A stretch of DNA of 64,000 nucleotides from Actinomycetes bacterium (GCA_021799035.1 JAJZBG010000008.1:1-64000); one strand, 5' to 3'. Positions 23,231 through 30,219 are shown, counted from the first letter of the stretch. The notes: generated by a model not told the origin, from the letters alone. Numbers and translations are program-made.

Positions 23231-25336
23231 CTAGGAGCTGATGCATCGCAGAAGGTCAGCTCCGAACTTTGATGCCTTAGCGCTGCCTATACCTGCAATC
23301 TTTGCAAGAGCTTCGACTGTCGAGGGCAAATGGGTAGCCACCATGCGAAGGCTGTTGTCGTGGAGAATTAGGTGAGCTGGAACTCCGAGTTCCTTTGACT
23401 TCTTGGATCGCCAAAGGCGAAGAGATGTCATGACTGCTTGCTGCTGGTCCGTCAAGGGTGTGCCGGATAGTTGTAGCTTGCGCCTCGCGCTTCTGATTGC
23501 CGTGAGGGCTTGTTCATTAGTTGCGATTTGCCCCGACAGCACTGCAATTTCATCTTGCAGCTTTGCCAGATATGGTGATGGATCCCTGTGGAGCTGGTGG
23601 TCGCCAAAGCTACGCTGTTTGGCCCAGCTCAGATGAAGGTCTCTTTGAGCTCGTGTGATAGCGACATACAAGAGCCGCTGCTCTTCTTGAAGAGCAGCCC
23701 TTGACTCAGCCCTTGCGATCGGTACCAGGCCATCCTCCATTCCGACAATGAACACGGTTTTCCATTCGAGGCCCTTTGCTTTGTGAAATGTGCTCAGGCT
23801 CACAGCATCGCGGTTGATGTCTGCCTTAGCATTTTGTGCTTCTATGCGGAGCCATTGGGCCAGAGCCAGAGCATCGCTTTCCGGAGAAGATGCTAGATGC
23901 TCGTGCGAGAGTTCCAGAAAGAGATTGAGGTTCTGATAGGCCGGACTTGTCTCGGGAAGGTTTCTGAGTGCCGCTTCTACGGTTGCCTCAAGGCGAGAGT
24001 AAAGAGAGCTTCCCCGCACAGAGCTGTTGTCTCGCTCTAGAATCGTCAAAATCGCCCTGACTTCGCTTTGGGAAAGATAATTTGACTCCCCAGCGAGAAA
24101 GACAGGAACGCCAAGCTCCTTGAGCTTTGTTTGAAACGGTATCAGCTGAGCGTTGGTTCGGGCCAAGATCGCTATATCTGCCCAGGTGGTTCCTGGCTGG
24201 TGGGCCAACTTTGCTCGCACGGCAACTGTGTTGGTTTCGGCCCGGTCGTCGCCGAATGTTCTTATCGACGGTATGGGGCCGTCTGGAAGATTTGCCACGA
24301 GTTCGGTGGCGTTTTCGCCCAGGAGATTCTGTCCTTTGAGGAGAGTCCCAGCTAGAGCCAGTATTTGAGGTGTTGAGCGGTAGTTCTGTGCCAACGCGAT
24401 GGTTTTTGAAGTTGGATACTTGGCAGCAAGGGTGGCAATGAGCTTCGGTTCAGCTCCGTTCCATGAGTAGATCGCTTGGTTTGGGTCTCCGACCACGCAC
24501 AGGTCTTGCCTGCCTCCGAGGAGGGCATTTACAAGACTCATTTGAACGGGGTTGATATCTTGAAATTCGTCGATGTAGAGATGCCGCATTCTGTAACGTT
24601 CCGTTGCTGCGAACTGTTGATCAGATGTAAGTGCATGTGTTGCCCATATGATCAAGTCGTCATAGTCGATTTTGCGGAGTCTGACCTTGATCGCTTCATA
24701 GCTCCGGAAGATGTCTCTGATTTCCGATGCAGTAAGTGGTGTGATTCGATTCGAACCTACGGCGGCATCAGGATATCCGTCGGGATTGATGCCTCGGGCC
24801 TTGGCCCACTCGATCTCGGCTGTGACAGCAGAGATAACAGACCGTCGATTCAGTTCGCTTTCTGCAGCTCCTGCTTCGAAGCGTCGGAGTGGTCTAGCGT
24901 GGCTTCTTGCCGTGGTGCCTACAGATGCCATCGCTTCGGAGACGATCCTAAACTTTGACTCGACCAAGTCGAAAGGGAGCTGGCCCTTTGATTCCCAGTA
25001 TCGTTGCAGAATCCGGAGAGCTGCTGCATGAAAGGTGTATGCGTCTATCTCGTCTCTCATGTGGAATGCTCGAAGGCGCTGTTTGAGTTCATTAGCGGCT
25101 TTTTTAGTGAAGGTTACTGCTAGGGTGTGGCGCGCATCAGCATCTCCCGTGAGGATCCTATGTGCGATTCGGCGTGTGAGAACCCTGGTCTTACCTGAGC
25201 CAGCCCCCGCAATAATTATTAGTGGGTGTTCTTTGGCGGTAACCGCTTCCAGCTGCTCTTTATTGAGGTTGGTGAGAATCCGCTCAATATTCGCAGACAC
25301 TGGTGACTGGTAGCTGATGCCCGGGTTCATTGCCAT
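23231..25336 (-). CDS. uvrD2: UvrD2-like superfamily I DNA helicase with HRDC domain
   Basis: A helicase of about 701 residues. Motif I is IIAGAGSGKTRVLTR, followed by LAVTFTKKAANELKQR (Ia), LYIDEFQDINPVQ (II), VVGDPNQAIYSWNGA (III), ALAQNYRST (IV), LSTFHKAKGLEWKTV (V) and LLYVAITRAQRDLHLSW (VI). The last 70 residues form an HRDC domain (VPAHLILHDNSLRMVA, AKIAGIGSAKASKFG), matching mycobacterial UvrD2 in length and architecture. The tetracysteine linker reported for mycobacterial UvrD2 is absent. ATG 25336 has AAGGT 5-6 nt upstream; ATG 25330 and ATG 25411 are alternatives. Confidence 0.88.
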   Translation of the reverse strand: MAMNPGISYQSPVSANIERILTNLNKEQLEAVTAKEHPLIIIAGAGSGKTRVLTRRIAHRILTGDADARHTLAVTFTKKAANELKQRLRAFHMRDEIDAYTFHAAALRILQRYWESKGQLPFDLVESKFRIVSEAMASVGTTARSHARPLRRFEAGAAESELNRRSVISAVTAEIEWAKARGINPDGYPDAAVGSNRITPLTASEIRDIFRSYEAIKVRLRKIDYDDLIIWATHALTSDQQFAATERYRMRHLYIDEFQDINPVQMSLVNALLGGRQDLCVVGDPNQAIYSWNGAEPKLIATLAAKYPTSKTIALAQNYRSTPQILALAGTLLKGQNLLGENATELVANLPDGPIPSIRTFGDDRAETNTVAVRAKLAHQPGTTWADIAILARTNAQLIPFQTKLKELGVPVFLAGESNYLSQSEVRAILTILERDNSSVRGSSLYSRLEATVEAALRNLPETSPAYQNLNLFLELSHEHLASSPESDALALAQWLRIEAQNAKADINRDAVSLSTFHKAKGLEWKTVFIVGMEDGLVPIARAESRAALQEEQRLLYVAITRAQRDLHLSWAKQRSFGDHQLHRDPSPYLAKLQDEIAVLSGQIATNEQALTAIRSARRKLQLSGTPLTDQQQAVMTSLRLWRSKKSKELGVPAHLILHDNSLRMVATHLPSTVEALAKIAGIGSAKASKFGADLLRCISS

Positions 25337-25340
25337 GCGG

Positions 25341-25547
25341 TTACCTTGAGCCGCAAACTGGGAGTCGATGCGTTGAGAATTGAGGAGAGTCGGAGGCAAA
25401 CAAGCCGCCATGAATGCATTTATCGGTCATCTCATTCTGTTGTGATCCGGATAGCCAAACGCGATACCCGGCTGGACCCTTTGTGTCGGTGCAGCCAGCA
25501 GTAGTCGGCAGGTTGTCGCCCATGAGGGCAACTCTCTTGGTGGTCAT
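25341..25547 (-). CDS. Possible small leaderless gene, 68 residues
   Basis: A short open frame not recognised as any family. Arguments that it is real: a TAGACT -10 element (25554-25559) ends exactly 6 nt before the ATG, as in leaderless actinobacterial genes, and its TAA stop lies within the AAGGTAA ribosome-binding region of the uvrD2 start at 25336, an operon-like junction. The product is polar with three cysteines (residues 19, 44 and 65) and no membrane segment. It lies between the radical SAM gene and uvrD2. It may also be chance coding in a uvrD2 leader. Confidence 0.3.
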   Translation of the reverse strand: MTTKRVALMGDNLPTTAGCTDTKGPAGYRVWLSGSQQNEMTDKCIHGGLFASDSPQFSTHRLPVCGSR

Positions 25548-25643: not shown

Positions 25644-27077
25644 CTATTGACCCTGACAACCAACCTCAGAGGGCGAGCCAAGCTGATTGGTTTGGGACTT
25701 TGTGGGTTCAGCGCAGCAAAACCACGACTCAGTTAACCTGGGCTTGCTTTCACACGTTGGAATACTTCTGTGAGGTGGTGCTGGCATGTTGAAGCGTCGG
25801 TAGATAGCCTCTCGCATCAGGGAAAAAACCGTGAAGGGATCAAGATCGTCGCACTCGGCATCTTCCGCAATTGAAGCTAGCTTCTGTTGAAGATCGTCGA
25901 TGGCGGGATCACTGCTGTGCCACTCGTAGGAAAGTGCCTCGGGATTCCAAGGGCCAAACTCGATATCGGCTTCACCCAAAACCAAGGAGCCGAGTGGCAC
26001 AAGGAGACGGATGGTCAGCTGAACAGGATCGACACTGTTCACAAGTTGGTTCTCGAAAAGGAACTCTACTAGATCGAGGAGGTTTTCGCGTGTCGTCCAA
26101 GGTGTGAACGGCATGAGCGATGGCCTCACCTCGATTCCCTTTTGGCGGAGCAGGCTTAGGGCTTCAAGGATATCTGAACGGGTGTGGCCTTTTCCAAGTC
26201 GTTTGAGGATCTCGTCGGAAGTGTGCTCGAAAGCTGAGACTATGAACTTGAGACCAAGGGTACTCAGTTCGTCCCAGATCCATCTGTTCTCGAGCACATG
26301 CTCGACTTTCACTGTTGCGTCGAACGTGAGGTCCGGATGGGCCGCATTCATCGCTCGCGCTATTCTCAAGGCATGCATCGGTCCATTCAGAAAATCAGGA
26401 TCTCCAAACGTTATATGCCTTGCGCCATTCTGATAGAGCTCGTTTATCTGAGCTAGGACAGTTTGTAATGGTACTGCCTTGAACCTGCCTCCGAAAACAA
26501 CGGGAACTGGGCAGTGGAGGCATTCATGGGCGCAACCAATCGTCGATTCGACGTAGCCCACAACCTTTTGTTCTACACCTTCTATAAGGTGCGCATAATT
26601 GGCCAGCCCGGGGAGTTTGGACCTATCGGGAATCAAGTTCGTCTCGTTCTTTTGGGTGGTTGATTGCGGGTCAACTCCGATTGCGCTCAAGATCTCGCCT
26701 CTGTTGCCAGATGCGACAGCTTGGTCAAACGAGGAAGAAGACGCCAGGGCCACTTTGGAATAAAGTCCCAGGGCGATGATTGTGATTGAGTCCCCGAAGA
26801 GCCTTCTTGCCCTGTCTGCTATCGCTCTGGCGAGCTGGGTGGCTGTGTGCATAGGCACCGATATGATCAGGTGCGTTGGCGGCATCTGATCTTCAAGTAG
26901 GAAGTCCTCAAGTCGGGTGAACGTTCGCTTGTCAACTGAGTTGTCACAAAGTGAGTACTCAATTCCGGCGGAATTCAGGATTGCTGCTATCCTCGCCAGC
27001 ACAAGCGGCTGCTGACCAAGTTCGTAAGTAGAAATTGCCAGCAGCCTGATCGGGGTGTTGCTTGAGGGTGTGGTCAT
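25644..27077 (-). CDS. CCAEP-tail radical SAM protein with B12-binding-like domain
   Basis: A 477-residue protein. Residues 10-135 resemble a cobalamin-binding-type Rossmann domain, but the DxHxxG cobalamin motif is not evident. The radical SAM core follows with the cluster motif GCAHECLHC (Cys 182, 186, 189), FGDPDFLNGP and VKVEHVLENRWIWDEL. The tail contains CCAEP at 454-458 (25704-25718), the signature of the CUAEP/CCAEP-tail radical SAM (seleno)protein family; both cysteines are TGC codons, so this is the Cys form. The reaction of the family is unknown to me. The start ATG overlaps the ATP-grasp stop as ATGA, showing tight translational coupling. Confidence 0.85.
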   Translation of the reverse strand: MTTPSSNTPIRLLAISTYELGQQPLVLARIAAILNSAGIEYSLCDNSVDKRTFTRLEDFLLEDQMPPTHLIISVPMHTATQLARAIADRARRLFGDSITIIALGLYSKVALASSSSFDQAVASGNRGEILSAIGVDPQSTTQKNETNLIPDRSKLPGLANYAHLIEGVEQKVVGYVESTIGCAHECLHCPVPVVFGGRFKAVPLQTVLAQINELYQNGARHITFGDPDFLNGPMHALRIARAMNAAHPDLTFDATVKVEHVLENRWIWDELSTLGLKFIVSAFEHTSDEILKRLGKGHTRSDILEALSLLRQKGIEVRPSLMPFTPWTTRENLLDLVEFLFENQLVNSVDPVQLTIRLLVPLGSLVLGEADIEFGPWNPEALSYEWHSSDPAIDDLQQKLASIAEDAECDDLDPFTVFSLMREAIYRRFNMPAPPHRSIPTCESKPRLTESWFCCAEPTKSQTNQLGSPSEVGCQGQ

Positions 27078-28297
27078 ATTATTTCCATCTTCAGTTTCTG
27101 AACTGCTTCTTCAAGGGCCCTGACCACTGCTTTAGTCGTAGGTGCCTTCGCAAAAACGAATCCAAGGTATTTAGCATCATAAGGGATGGGAAAGACCTCG
27201 GTGTTTTCTGAGTAGGTCATGTCCACTCCCGTCACCCATTTCACAGCTCGCGCCTCATCAATTCCTGCAATCAGTTTTAGAGTCCCTTTCCGTGGCACTG
27301 GAATCATGTATACCCCGGAAGCTTGGTTCTCAAACGATAGCTCCGGGGGTGAGATTCCTGCAGCTTCGGCAAGTATAAGTTCCTCGATACTTCTTCCTGC
27401 TGATAGAGGGACGGCTTTCGAACAAGTGCCGCCAATGGATCTGGCCGCAAGCTCAATGAAGTAAATATCACCGGAGTCAGCAATGCGAAATTCAGCGTGG
27501 ATCGGCCCCGTCGTTATTCCCAGCTCTATCCTTGCTGTGTCGAGAGCCGCAAAGAGAGCATCGATCGACTTATGTGGAAGCGAGGTTGGGGTAACGTAAA
27601 TTGTCTCGGCGAAGAAAGGCCCTAGTAGCGGTTGAGGCTTATCGAAGATGGCTAAGAGCTGAAGCTGACCCGCTATCACTATCGCTTCGACGGCATGTTC
27701 GTTTCCGTTTACGTATTCCTCGATCAGTAAAGGTTGGCTGGAATCGCATCCGTGCAATGCTTGAATCGAACGAACAAGTGGAATCTTCTCGCGAACTTCT
27801 TCCAGCGAATTTGCTCGCATGACCCCAATCGATCCAGAAAGGGTGGCTGGTTTGATCACAACCGGCATCGTTCCTACCAGCGACAACTTTTCTTCCAAGC
27901 TTTCTGAGTCGTCATACGTTTGAAATTTCGGCTGAAGGACCGTCGCGCCGGAAAGCCTCTTTCTCATGGCTATCTTGTTTTGCGCCAGATCGGTGGTGGA
28001 TGTGGAGATGTGTTTCAATCCGAGCTTTTCGCTGGCTAGAGCCGCTGTTCTGAGCCCGGTGTCATCGATTGAGACTACTGCGTCGAAAGGTCTTGCCTTG
28101 TGTGCTTCTTGAATCTGGCTAGCTCCGATATCTGGATTCTCCAGAGAGACGACGATGGCCCTTCCATCCATGCGATGGGCCATTGGCAGGAGATCCTCAG
28201 AGGCAATGGTGATTGCGATGTCGAGGCGGGCTGCAGCATCGACGAAGGCCTGGGCTCTGTATGTTTCAGTGGGTACGAGAAGCAGGACGTTTTTCAC
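27074..28297 (-). CDS. ATP-grasp family ligase partner of the radical SAM gene
   Basis: A protein of about 407 residues. The N-terminal pre-ATP-grasp domain (KNVLLLVPTETYRAQAF) is followed by PVVIKPATLSGSIGV (the lysine strand and glycine loop), LLIEEYVNGNEHAVE and the Mg-binding FRIADSGDIYFIELAARSIG, as in ATP-grasp carboxylate-amine or peptide ligases such as L-amino-acid ligases. It should activate a carboxylate as acyl-phosphate and join it to an amine or thiol. The start is uncertain: GTG 28297 places the first beta-strand at the N-terminus and lies 10 nt after a TAGAAT -10 box; TTG 28345 has no better signal. The gene overlaps the radical SAM gene by 4 nt. Confidence 0.8.
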   Translation of the reverse strand: MKNVLLLVPTETYRAQAFVDAAARLDIAITIASEDLLPMAHRMDGRAIVVSLENPDIGASQIQEAHKARPFDAVVSIDDTGLRTAALASEKLGLKHISTSTTDLAQNKIAMRKRLSGATVLQPKFQTYDDSESLEEKLSLVGTMPVVIKPATLSGSIGVMRANSLEEVREKIPLVRSIQALHGCDSSQPLLIEEYVNGNEHAVEAIVIAGQLQLLAIFDKPQPLLGPFFAETIYVTPTSLPHKSIDALFAALDTARIELGITTGPIHAEFRIADSGDIYFIELAARSIGGTCSKAVPLSAGRSIEELILAEAAGISPPELSFENQASGVYMIPVPRKGTLKLIAGIDEARAVKWVTGVDMTYSENTEVFPIPYDAKYLGFVFAKAPTTKAVVRALEEAVQKLKMEII

Positions 28298-28399
28298 TTG
28301 ACTTAAGATTCTACTAGCCAGGTAGTATTTATTAGTTGTGCGCAATACTTGGAAAAGAGATTTGCGTAGATTCGATCTTTCGCAAAGGTTGGAGTTCTC

Positions 28400-29056
28400 G
28401 TGGAAAGCGTCTTTGGTTCAAATAACACCGGGGTTCTGGAAGTAAGCGATAGGGCCCTATCTGAAATTCTTGAAATTCGATCTCAGGAACCCGACCCAGA
28501 CAAGCTGGCACTTTGGATCGAGATATCCGGAGTCAATGGTAACAGCTACTCTTACGACGTTTACTTTCAAGATAGAAGCGATGCCGGAGGAGATGACGCC
28601 ATTATTGAGCTGGGTGGGATAGCTGTGGTTGTTCCGTCGAGCAGTGTCGCCTCGATATCCGGGTCGAAGCTTGACCTCGGCGGTGATGACGGGTCTGGCG
28701 GCTTGATGATCGTCAATCCTAACTCCCCGCCCAGCCTAGATTCGGGGCTCCCTGAGGAGCTGATGGATGCCGACCTGAGCGGTCCGCTGGCGCAAGAGAT
28801 AATTCGCGTGCTTCAGGATGAGATCAATCCGGCAATCGCATCTCATGGAGGAAGGGCGGATCTCGTGGCAGTTGCAGATTCGACCGCATACCTTCGTCTC
28901 TCAGGTGGATGCCAAGGGTGCGGAATGGCGTCTGTGACTCTGTCGCAAGGGATTGAAGTGGCAATAAAGGAGGCCGTGCCTGCGATTACGTCTGTCAAAG
29001 ACGTCACTGACCACATGAACGGCGCCAATCCCTATTACGGGGCATCGAAGAAGTAA
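28400..29056 (+). CDS. NfuA-like Fe-S cluster carrier protein
   Basis: A 218-residue protein. Residues 10-105 resemble an A-type (HesB/IscA) domain without the cysteines needed for cluster binding (degenerate). Residues 125-200 form a NifU C-terminal domain with the CxxC motif GGCQGCGMAS (Cys 171 and 174). This two-domain layout is that of NfuA, which carries a 4Fe-4S cluster between two subunits and hands it to client enzymes. GTG 28400 has GGAG 5 nt upstream. It is divergent from the ATP-grasp/radical SAM genes across about 100 nt, so supply of clusters to that radical enzyme is possible (inference only). Confidence 0.85.
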   Translation: MESVFGSNNTGVLEVSDRALSEILEIRSQEPDPDKLALWIEISGVNGNSYSYDVYFQDRSDAGGDDAIIELGGIAVVVPSSSVASISGSKLDLGGDDGSGGLMIVNPNSPPSLDSGLPEELMDADLSGPLAQEIIRVLQDEINPAIASHGGRADLVAVADSTAYLRLSGGCQGCGMASVTLSQGIEVAIKEAVPAITSVKDVTDHMNGANPYYGASKK

Positions 29057-29113: not shown

Positions 29114-29671
29114 CTAGGCCTTGATGAGCTGGATCTCCAGTGAGATCTGAATCTTGTCGCTGACAAGAACACCGCTTCCCTCGAGCGGAACATTCCACTC
29201 CATGCCGAAATCCTTGCGAGAGATTTCACCTGTTGCCGAGTATCCCGAACGAGTATTTCCCCACGGGTCTTTTGAAACGCCGTTGAATTCCAGGTCAAGC
29301 GTGACGCTTCGCGTGGCGTCTCGTATGGTCAGATTGCCAGTGAGCGCATAGTGGTCTCCAGCGGGTGTTACAGAGGTGGACGTGAATGCAATCTTTGGAA
29401 ACTTCTCGACGTCGAAAAAGTCGGCTGACTTGAGGTGGTTGTCGCGCTCTGTCTCACCGGTAGAGACCGATGCCACGTCTATTTCTGCCGATATCTTTGA
29501 TTGTGACAAGTCATCCGCAATTTCCACGGAAGCCGAGTAGCTCGAGAATGAGCCACGAACCTTGGTGACGACAAGGTGCCGAGCAGTAAATTCGACTGCG
29601 GAGTGTGCGGGATCGAGGTTCCATATGCCTGGCTCAATCGAGAGATCTGACGCTTTTGTTGGTGAAGCCAT
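29114..29671 (-). CDS. YceI-family lipocalin-like protein
   Basis: A 185-residue protein of the YceI family: GIWNLDPAHSAVEFTARHL at the N-terminus, FPKIAFTSTSV, LTIRDATRSVTL, KDFGMEWN and DKIQISLEIQL at the C-terminus. These form an extended beta-barrel that binds polyisoprenoid chains in the structurally studied members. There is no signal peptide, so it is cytoplasmic. ATG 29671 has GGAGG 5 nt upstream. It is divergent from a MarR regulator with a shared 65-nt promoter region that contains inverted repeats, an arrangement common for YceI in actinobacteria. Confidence 0.9.
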   Translation of the reverse strand: MASPTKASDLSIEPGIWNLDPAHSAVEFTARHLVVTKVRGSFSSYSASVEIADDLSQSKISAEIDVASVSTGETERDNHLKSADFFDVEKFPKIAFTSTSVTPAGDHYALTGNLTIRDATRSVTLDLEFNGVSKDPWGNTRSGYSATGEISRKDFGMEWNVPLEGSGVLVSDKIQISLEIQLIKA

Positions 29672-29683
29672 CTTGTCCTCCAT

Positions 29684-29730: not shown

Positions 29731-29742
29731 TTGCACATGCAA
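29731..29742. promoter_or_regulatory. Short palindrome over the marR-like start codon
   Basis: TTGCA and TGCAA flank a 2-bp spacer that, with the following T, gives the ATG at 29737. TTGCA/TGCAA arms are typical of MarR-family binding sites. It could be a second, weaker operator or chance. Confidence 0.4.
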
Positions 29743-30219
29743 TCAAATTTAGCAGACAAATCTTCTGGATCTGGTGTCCATTGGCTCGATGACGTCGAGA
29801 TGCGAGCCTGGAGGGGCTTGCTCTCAGTTCATTCTCAGCTTTACAGCAAGCTGGATGAGGAACTGATTAGGGCTCACGGAATAACCTTTGCTGAGTACGA
29901 GGTCCTGGTTCATACATCGGAAGGCCTTGGTGGTTCTGTGAGAATGTCTACGCTTGCCGAAGCTGCCTTGGTATCAAGGTCAGGGCTGACCAGGCGTGTC
30001 CAGCACCTTGTTGCGGTCGGTCTTTTGGAACGGAGAAAGTGCAAGGAGGATAAGCGGGGCACCTTCGCGGTGCTCACTCCTCTTGGCTGGGAGAAGCTGC
30101 GGGCTGCAGCTTCTACTCATCTCAAAGGGGTTCGCGAGCATATGATCTCGAAGCTTTCCCGAGCCGAGCTTGAAGCGCTCGCTGCGGCTTTTGAAAAAGT
30201 CACCGCTTCCGACGCCTAA
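29737..30219 (+). CDS. MarR-family transcriptional regulator
   Basis: A 160-residue winged-helix protein. Dimerisation helices lie at about 15-45 (MRAWRGLLSVHSQLYSKL), the helix-turn-helix at about 65-105 (MSTLAEAALVSRSGLTRRVQHLVAVGL, with the typical S-R-LTRRV recognition helix) and the wing at KCKEDKRGTFAVLT. Members repress target genes and release DNA on binding small phenolic or oxidant ligands. ATG 29737 is preferred over TTG 29731. It is divergent from yceI; inverted repeats cover the shared promoter, so it probably controls both itself and yceI. Confidence 0.88.
   Translation: MQSNLADKSSGSGVHWLDDVEMRAWRGLLSVHSQLYSKLDEELIRAHGITFAEYEVLVHTSEGLGGSVRMSTLAEAALVSRSGLTRRVQHLVAVGLLERRKCKEDKRGTFAVLTPLGWEKLRAAASTHLKGVREHMISKLSRAELEALAAAFEKVTASDA

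What the first reader, a model, noticed from the sequence alone, without database searches (positions are those of the whole stretch)
25644..28297. ATP-grasp plus CCAEP-tail radical SAM pair: a two-enzyme pathway of unknown product
The ATP-grasp and radical SAM genes overlap by 4 nt (ATGA) and read as a closed two-gene unit. The radical SAM protein has the CxxxCxxC cluster (Cys 182/186/189), a B12-binding-like N-terminal domain and the CCAEP tail at residues 454-458, the Cys form of a family in which some members carry selenocysteine at the first of these cysteines. A radical enzyme tied to a carboxylate ligase suggests synthesis or modification of a small peptide-like or thiol-bearing molecule. 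The CC pair may act as a redox or acceptor site; both are inference.
Basis: partly seen in the sequence, partly recalled or inferred. Interest (0 to 1): 0.75.

Follow-up and report, generated by a model that had tools for sequence, protein, structure and literature searches.

The report
Radical-SAM, amino-acid ligase, iron-sulfur module
Two neighbouring enzymes, a radical enzyme related to the one that builds the arsenic antibiotic arsinothricin and an amino-acid-joining enzyme, always occur together and sit beside iron-sulfur-cluster genes in many bacterial phyla, which points to an undiscovered small molecule probably linked to iron-sulfur upkeep.

Summary
The gene pair is real: the ATP-grasp gene (27074-28297, minus) and the radical SAM gene (25644-27077, minus) overlap by ATGA. 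The radical SAM protein has CX3CX2C at 182/186/189 and the tail WFCCAEP. It falls in the CUAEP/CCAEP-tail clade (NCBIfam NF040546, below NCBI's cut-off). Its nearest characterised relative is ArsL, which makes the carbon-arsenic bond of arsinothricin. It is not in a known B12 methyltransferase clade. Where selenocysteine occurs (32 of 80 relatives), it replaces the second tail Cys, not the first. The ATP-grasp is an L-amino-acid-ligase type, closest in fold to BL00235. All 55 radical-SAM-positive genomes among 98 order-level relatives also carry this ATP-grasp, as do 15 of 15 genomes, mostly from other phyla or classes, where the genes are apart. The unit is not closed: an Nfu-type iron-sulfur carrier gene adjoins the ATP-grasp in 56 of 58 genomes, even where the radical SAM gene lies elsewhere. 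In other lineages yggX adjoins the radical SAM gene. Best reading: ArsL-like transfer of the aminocarboxypropyl part of SAM onto a soft acceptor held by the Cys-Cys/Cys-Sec tail, then ligation to an amino acid. The product probably serves iron-sulfur homeostasis. Co-occurrence and linkage are shown; chemistry and product are inferred.

The parts
25644..27077 (-). CCAEP-tail radical SAM enzyme, 477 aa (second gene of the operon)
   Evidence: NF040546 E 9e-137, 456.5 bits against cut-off 500; NF040542 (ArsL) 217.5 bits; PF04055; model pLDDT 94
26511..26534 (-). CX3CX2C radical SAM cluster motif, Cys182/186/189
   Evidence: invariant in 66 aligned relatives
25704..25718 (-). C-terminal CCAEP tail, residues 454-458; Sec replaces Cys455 in 32 of 80 relatives
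27006..27032 (-). N-terminal S-x-[YF]-E-x-G-x-Q-P motif shared with ArsL, in the loop where B12 enzymes have DxHxxG
27074..28297 (-). ATP-grasp amino-acid-ligase-type enzyme (GTG start; ORF open to TTG at 28345); overlaps the radical SAM gene by ATGA
   Evidence: PF13535, PF18130, LAL_C2 PF18603; profile match to 3VOT E 9e-66; fold match TM 0.82; overlap
28400..29056 (+). Nfu-like iron-sulfur carrier (NifU domain with CxxC), divergent from the ATP-grasp gene; third member of the conserved neighbourhood
   Evidence: PF01106 E 4e-20; adjacent in 56 of 58 ATP-grasp-positive relatives
28312..28327 (-). conserved dyad TACTACCTGGCTAGTA just upstream of the GTG start of the ATP-grasp gene, possible operator
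   Evidence: same in L046, L048, L049; perfect palindrome TACTACCCGGGTAGTA in L047; function inferred

Best explanation
A two-enzyme biosynthetic pathway tied to iron-sulfur cluster upkeep. Shown: the radical SAM and ATP-grasp genes co-occur almost without exception. The ATP-grasp gene adjoins an nfu-type gene in the order and in several other phyla; in other lineages yggX adjoins the radical SAM gene instead. The radical SAM protein is the sister family of ArsL, and both families end in a vicinal Cys pair. [quoted passage not shown] The ATP-grasp ligase, of the type of the Met-accepting L-amino-acid ligase BL00235, then joins it to a second amino acid. The small peptide-like product acts with Nfu or YggX in iron or iron-sulfur handling. 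The acceptor and product are unknown. Selenium and arsenic methylation are not required. My separate estimates: conserved pathway 0.95, functional tie to iron-sulfur metabolism 0.6, ArsL-type aminocarboxypropyl chemistry 0.4; the whole chain is scored in the confidence field.
For: Co-occurrence 55/0/3/40, Fisher p 2.5e-24, and 15 of 15 genomes with the genes unlinked. ATP-grasp within 250 nt upstream on the same strand in 32 of 65 loci with enough sequence. ArsL relation is reciprocal: 217.5 bits for the window protein against the ArsL model, 312-366 bits for ArsL-type proteins against the CUAEP model, and under 80 bits to any other family either way; full-length alignment with aligned CC tails; two clades, each with support 100. 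ArsL alone makes AST-OH from As(III) in E. coli (PMC8552651). ArsL-type clusters on plasmids also carry ATP-grasp genes. The ATP-grasp is closest to BL00235, which makes Met-Gly and Met-Met (PMC6920838). Nfu or YggX near the radical SAM gene in 50 of 80 loci, never both. ATP-grasp next to Nfu in 56 of 58 genomes, 8 of them with the radical SAM gene elsewhere or not found intact, and in 9 of 15 genomes with unlinked genes. The Nfu partners have different N-terminal domains in different phyla, which argues against mere inherited gene order. One locus lies at the end of a suf operon.
Against: No acceptor or product is known. No arsenic biosynthesis context in the neighbourhoods and ArsM is not associated. 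The ATP-grasps of the two families are only distantly related. ArsL's own mechanism had not been shown in vitro in the source paper. The closest solved fold, AprD4, uses conventional 5'-deoxyadenosyl chemistry (own knowledge). The Nfu link could reflect only the cluster needs of the radical SAM enzyme.
Confidence: 0.3

Rival explanations
1. Conventional 5'-deoxyadenosyl-radical enzyme (dehydratase, oxidase or epimerase type) in which the C-terminal Cys-Cys/Cys-Sec pair is a thiol redox pair or hydrogen-atom donor; the ATP-grasp ligates the modified amino acid.
For: Closest solved fold is AprD4, a B12-less dehydratase (Z 25). The tail is predicted ordered (pLDDT about 91). Sec and Cys interchange at least 12 times by parsimony, as for a redox residue.
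Against: By sequence the nearest characterised enzyme is ArsL, not AprD4 (217.5 against 24.4 bits), and the tail Cys pair aligns with that of ArsL.
Confidence: 0.3
2. Nfu and YggX are present only to build or repair the oxygen-sensitive cluster of this radical SAM enzyme; the product has nothing to do with iron-sulfur metabolism.
For: Nfu proteins serve damage-prone radical SAM enzymes such as LipA (own knowledge), and lipB/lipA lie downstream in Chloroflexota loci.
Against: Nfu stays next to the ATP-grasp, not the radical SAM gene, when the two enzymes are separated; several Nfu architectures are used; one locus sits in a general suf operon.
Confidence: 0.3
3. It makes an organoarsenical like ArsL does (AST-OH or an AST-containing dipeptide).
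For: Sister family of ArsL; ArsL clusters also carry an ATP-grasp gene.
Against: None of ArsM, ArsN1 or ArsQ found in 80 neighbourhoods apart from one weak partial ArsM hit; ArsM 15 of 55 against 9 of 43, p 0.49; the window genome itself has no ArsM match.
Confidence: 0.08
4. The ATP-grasp attaches the unusual amino acid to a protein, for example the conserved C terminus of the Nfu partner, rather than making a free dipeptide.
For: The Nfu partners share an invariant C-terminal D-x-T-D-H-x-x-G-x-N-P-Y region and adjoin the ATP-grasp.
Against: Domain make-up and fold are those of free-amino-acid ligases; similar Nfu C termini occur without the pair (own knowledge).
Confidence: 0.07
5. B12-dependent radical SAM methyltransferase.
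For: N-terminal Rossmann-like domain; fold similarity to OxsB, MgmA and TsrM.
Against: No Pfam B12-binding match; DxHxxG absent; methyltransferase families score at most 45 bits.
Confidence: 0.05

Closest known systems
CUAEP/CCAEP-tail radical SAM (seleno)protein, NCBIfam NF040546
   Same: Full-length match, CX3CX2C, WFC[C/U]AEP tail, same clade
   Different: Scores 456.5, below the curated cut-off of 500; Cys form although the genome has a SelD that itself contains an in-frame TGA
ArsL, arsinothricin biosynthesis radical SAM (NF040542, RCCLKC tail)
   Same: Full-length homology including the N-terminal domain and S-x-[YF]-E-x-G-x-Q-P; vicinal Cys at the C terminus; an ATP-grasp gene nearby in several clusters
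   Different: Tail is CCAEP not RCCLKC; no arsenic biosynthesis genes; chromosomal and widespread; separate clade; ATP-grasp only distantly related
AprD4 radical SAM 1,2-diol dehydratase (6FD2)
   Same: Closest solved fold over residues 8-432, Z 25.0, rmsd 4.2, 396 aligned
   Different: 14% identity; no CCAEP tail; only 24.4 bits by family model
L-amino acid ligase BL00235 (3VOT)
   Same: ATP-grasp_4, ATPgrasp_N and LAL_C2 domains; near full-length profile match and TM 0.82
   Different: 24% identity; substrates unknown; always with a radical SAM partner
NfuA iron-sulfur carrier
   Same: NifU domain with CxxC and C-terminal NPYY-like end
   Different: 94.7 bits against the NfuA cut-off of 269; N-terminal domain differs between phyla

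Membership tests
CUAEP/CCAEP-tail radical SAM (NF040546) | C-terminal W[FY]C[C/U]AEP | tested here: met
   WFCCAEP at 452-458
CUAEP/CCAEP-tail radical SAM (NF040546) | full-length match to the family model | tested here: met
   residues 13-464 to model 2-467 of 468
CUAEP/CCAEP-tail radical SAM (NF040546) | curated equivalog cut-off of 500 bits | tested here: not met
   456.5 bits; so I call it a divergent clade member under the naming threshold, not an NCBI-rule equivalog
CUAEP/CCAEP-tail radical SAM (NF040546) | groups with the CUAEP/CCAEP-tail proteins to the exclusion of ArsL | tested here: met
   80-row clade with support 100 against the five ArsL rows
ArsL (NF040542) | RCCLKC tail and 450-bit cut-off | tested here: not met
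   CCAEP tail; 217.5 bits
ArsL (NF040542) | arsenic gene context (arsM, arsR, arsQ) | tested here: not met
ArsL (NF040542) | aminocarboxypropyl transfer to As(III) | not testable with these tools
   needs expression or enzyme assay
cobalamin-dependent radical SAM methyltransferases | B12-binding domain with DxHxxG | tested here: not met
   no Pfam match; Ser16/Tyr18 at the Asp/His positions
cobalamin-dependent radical SAM methyltransferases | cobalamin binding | not testable with these tools
   needs protein; TsrM shows that binding without DxHxxG is possible (own knowledge)
L-amino acid ligases (LAL_C2 type) | ATPgrasp_N, ATP-grasp_4 and LAL_C2 domains | tested here: met
   all above Pfam gathering scores
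L-amino acid ligases (LAL_C2 type) | fold of BL00235/BacD | tested here: met
   top PDB match 3VOT, TM 0.82
L-amino acid ligases (LAL_C2 type) | ATP-dependent dipeptide synthesis | not testable with these tools
   needs enzyme assay
NfuA (TIGR03341) | NifU domain with CxxC | tested here: met
NfuA (TIGR03341) | equivalog cut-off of 269 bits | tested here: not met
   94.7 bits; called Nfu-like only

The most novel reading that the evidence does not exclude
A previously undescribed metabolite, a dipeptide-like compound carrying a SAM-derived methionine-like amino acid built by a Cys-Cys/Cys-Sec-tailed radical SAM enzyme, is a general iron-sulfur homeostasis factor that works with Nfu or YggX in Actinomycetota, Chloroflexota, Nitrospirota, Acidobacteriota, Gemmatimonadota and others.
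Probability: 0.25. Interest if true: 0.93.

Novelty: new variant of a known kind. Interest (0 to 1): 0.74.

Why it matters
The radical SAM family is named but has no assigned function. A 2026 review of prokaryotic selenoproteins does not list its model (PMC13188914), and no paper in the held library contains the string CUAEP (two papers by the likely annotator are not held). Showing that it is the sister of ArsL, always comes with an amino-acid ligase, and travels with Nfu or YggX turns an orphan enzyme into a concrete hypothesis: a new small molecule, made by carbon-heteroatom radical chemistry, that serves iron-sulfur cluster upkeep in phyla where this biology is little known. The gene set is small enough to express and test.

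Tried and rejected
Selenium as obligatory substrate: 35 of 55 radical-SAM-positive relatives have no SelD match. Arsenic as the general substrate: no arsM/arsN/arsQ context beyond one weak partial hit, no ArsM association. Mycothiol replacement: the MshC model matched 97 of 98 relatives below its cut-off, so no anti-correlation and no information. Orthology of the ATP-grasps of CUAEP and ArsL clusters: only 28-30% identity over part of the length, and better matches exist on plasmids, so the shared pairing may be convergent. Position of the tail relative to the cluster could not be measured: coordinates of the model were not available to scripts; only its confidence is known. An apparent TGA in G014 was the ordinary stop codon. 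Early sampling missed many Nfu and YggX genes because of ORF-calling artefacts in high-GC DNA; direct tblastn corrected this. The ABC-ATPase neighbour cluster mixes unrelated ABC ATPases and was dropped. Two genomes with ATP-grasp and no radical SAM match remain: G092, and G055 whose ATP-grasp match is weak.

Full report
Observation. On the minus strand an ATP-grasp gene and a radical SAM gene overlap by ATGA. The radical SAM ORF is 25644-27077 (477 aa). The first 14 residues of the long form have pLDDT under 50 in the model, and the DNA there carries a conserved dyad, so the GTG start is likelier. CX3CX2C (182/186/189) and the tail WFCCAEP (452-458) are present and invariant or nearly so in an alignment of 66 relatives. 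Only five Cys are invariant, the three cluster Cys and the tail pair.

Family. The best NCBIfam model is NF040546 (CUAEP/CCAEP-tail radical SAM), 456.5 bits against a cut-off of 500. The second is ArsL, NF040542, 217.5 bits; every other family is at about 45 bits or less. Reciprocally, ArsL-type proteins score 312-366 bits on the CUAEP model and under 80 on any other. They align over nearly the whole length with this protein, and the Cys pair of RCCLKC falls on that of CCAEP. In a tree of 85 proteins the CUAEP set with the window protein and the ArsL set are separate clades, each with support 100. The closest solved fold is AprD4 (Z 25), then OxsB, MgmA and TsrM. DxHxxG is absent and no B12-binding domain is found by Pfam.

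Selenocysteine. In 80 relatives from GTDB genomes the codon of the second tail Cys is TGC/TGT in 48 and TGA in 32; the first is always Cys. After the TGA the frame continues with AEP in varied synonymous codons. A hairpin of 6 bp or more follows about 15 nt downstream in 26 of 31 TGA forms against 9 of 48 Cys forms, p 1e-8, as expected for a bacterial SECIS. On the tree Sec and Cys change at least 12 times. Many carriers have no SelD match, so selenium is an optional improvement of this residue, not the substrate. The window genome has SelD with its own in-frame TGA, yet uses the Cys form here.

The pair. Among 98 genomes of the order, 55 have both enzymes, none the radical SAM alone, 3 the ATP-grasp alone, 40 neither (p 2.5e-24). 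Of the three, G039 holds a radical SAM fragment at a contig edge. In 15 of 15 genomes, mostly from other phyla or classes, whose radical SAM locus lacks the ATP-grasp, the same ATP-grasp family is found elsewhere. These genomes are related to one another, so the p value overstates independence; the unlinked cases from several phyla are the stronger point. The ATP-grasp carries ATPgrasp_N, ATP-grasp_4 and LAL_C2. It matches the L-amino-acid ligase BL00235 best by profile (E 9e-66) and fold (TM 0.82). BL00235 makes Met-Gly and Met-Met (PMC6920838).

The third partner. An Nfu-like gene (36 loci) or yggX (14 loci) lies near the radical SAM gene in 50 of 80 loci, never both. Where the ATP-grasp has moved away from the radical SAM gene, it is beside an Nfu-type gene in 9 of 15 genomes. 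Within the order, an Nfu-like gene lies within 1.5 kb of the ATP-grasp in 56 of 58 genomes, against 48 of 58 for the radical SAM gene. The linked Nfu proteins have different N-terminal parts in different phyla (none detected, A-type Fe-S_biosyn, or Nfu_N) but the same NifU domain. In an Ignavibacteriales genome the radical SAM gene follows a sufB-C-D-S-U-sufT-erpA series and precedes nfu and the ATP-grasp. This ties the pathway to iron-sulfur metabolism more generally than to the needs of one enzyme.

Mechanism. From ArsL, which alone makes AST-OH from arsenite in E. coli by proposed aminocarboxypropyl transfer (PMC8552651), I infer that this enzyme transfers the same group to a soft acceptor bound by the tail Cys-Cys or Cys-Sec. 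A methionine-like amino acid would result, which suits a BL00235-like ligase. ArsL-type clusters on plasmids of Priestia, Alicyclobacillus, Klebsiella and Pantoea also hold ATP-grasp genes, though these are distant relatives. The acceptor is not known. Arsenic is unlikely as the general one. A conventional 5'-deoxyadenosyl reaction with a thiol or selenol redox tail is a serious rival.

Verdict. A real, widespread and, as far as the held literature shows, undescribed biosynthetic unit built from enzymes of known kinds. The linkage is well shown, the chemistry is moderately supported by homology, and the product is open.

Noticed in passing
L127, L128, L130, L131: Plasmid arsinothricin-type clusters of Priestia, Alicyclobacillus, Klebsiella and Pantoea contain an ATP-grasp gene beside the RCCLKC-tail radical SAM gene (arsM annotated in three of the four), suggesting peptide forms of arsinothricin.
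   Followed up: partly
L126:6959-8395: The Thermomicrobium roseum CUAEP protein is annotated as ending at WFC; the frame continues through TGA as WFCUAEP, so the record is truncated at a likely Sec codon.
   Followed up: yes
window 28312-28327: Dyad TACTACCTGGCTAGTA before the ATP-grasp gene, conserved in four relatives and a perfect palindrome in one; a MarR-type regulator lies nearby at 29731-30219 and is also conserved in neighbourhoods.
   Followed up: no
L051, L052, L055, L057, L058, L059, L104, L109, L117: In these Chloroflexota lipB, lipA and/or pyruvate dehydrogenase genes follow the radical SAM gene.
   Followed up: no
L051, L055, L058, L059, L078, L093, L096, L097, L106, L109, L110: A DUF169 gene (PF02596, function unknown) is a recurrent neighbour in 11 loci of three phyla.
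   Followed up: no
window 23231-25411: UvrD/Rep-like helicase with an HRDC domain downstream of the radical SAM gene; a UvrD-like helicase is also downstream in 6 related loci.
   Followed up: no
window 29114-29683: YceI-family gene beyond the Nfu-like gene, conserved in 6 related loci.
   Followed up: no
L080, L082, L083, L084, L085, L087, L125: A formyltransferase-domain protein (PF00551) is divergent upstream of yggX and the radical SAM gene in Ktedonobacteria.
   Followed up: no
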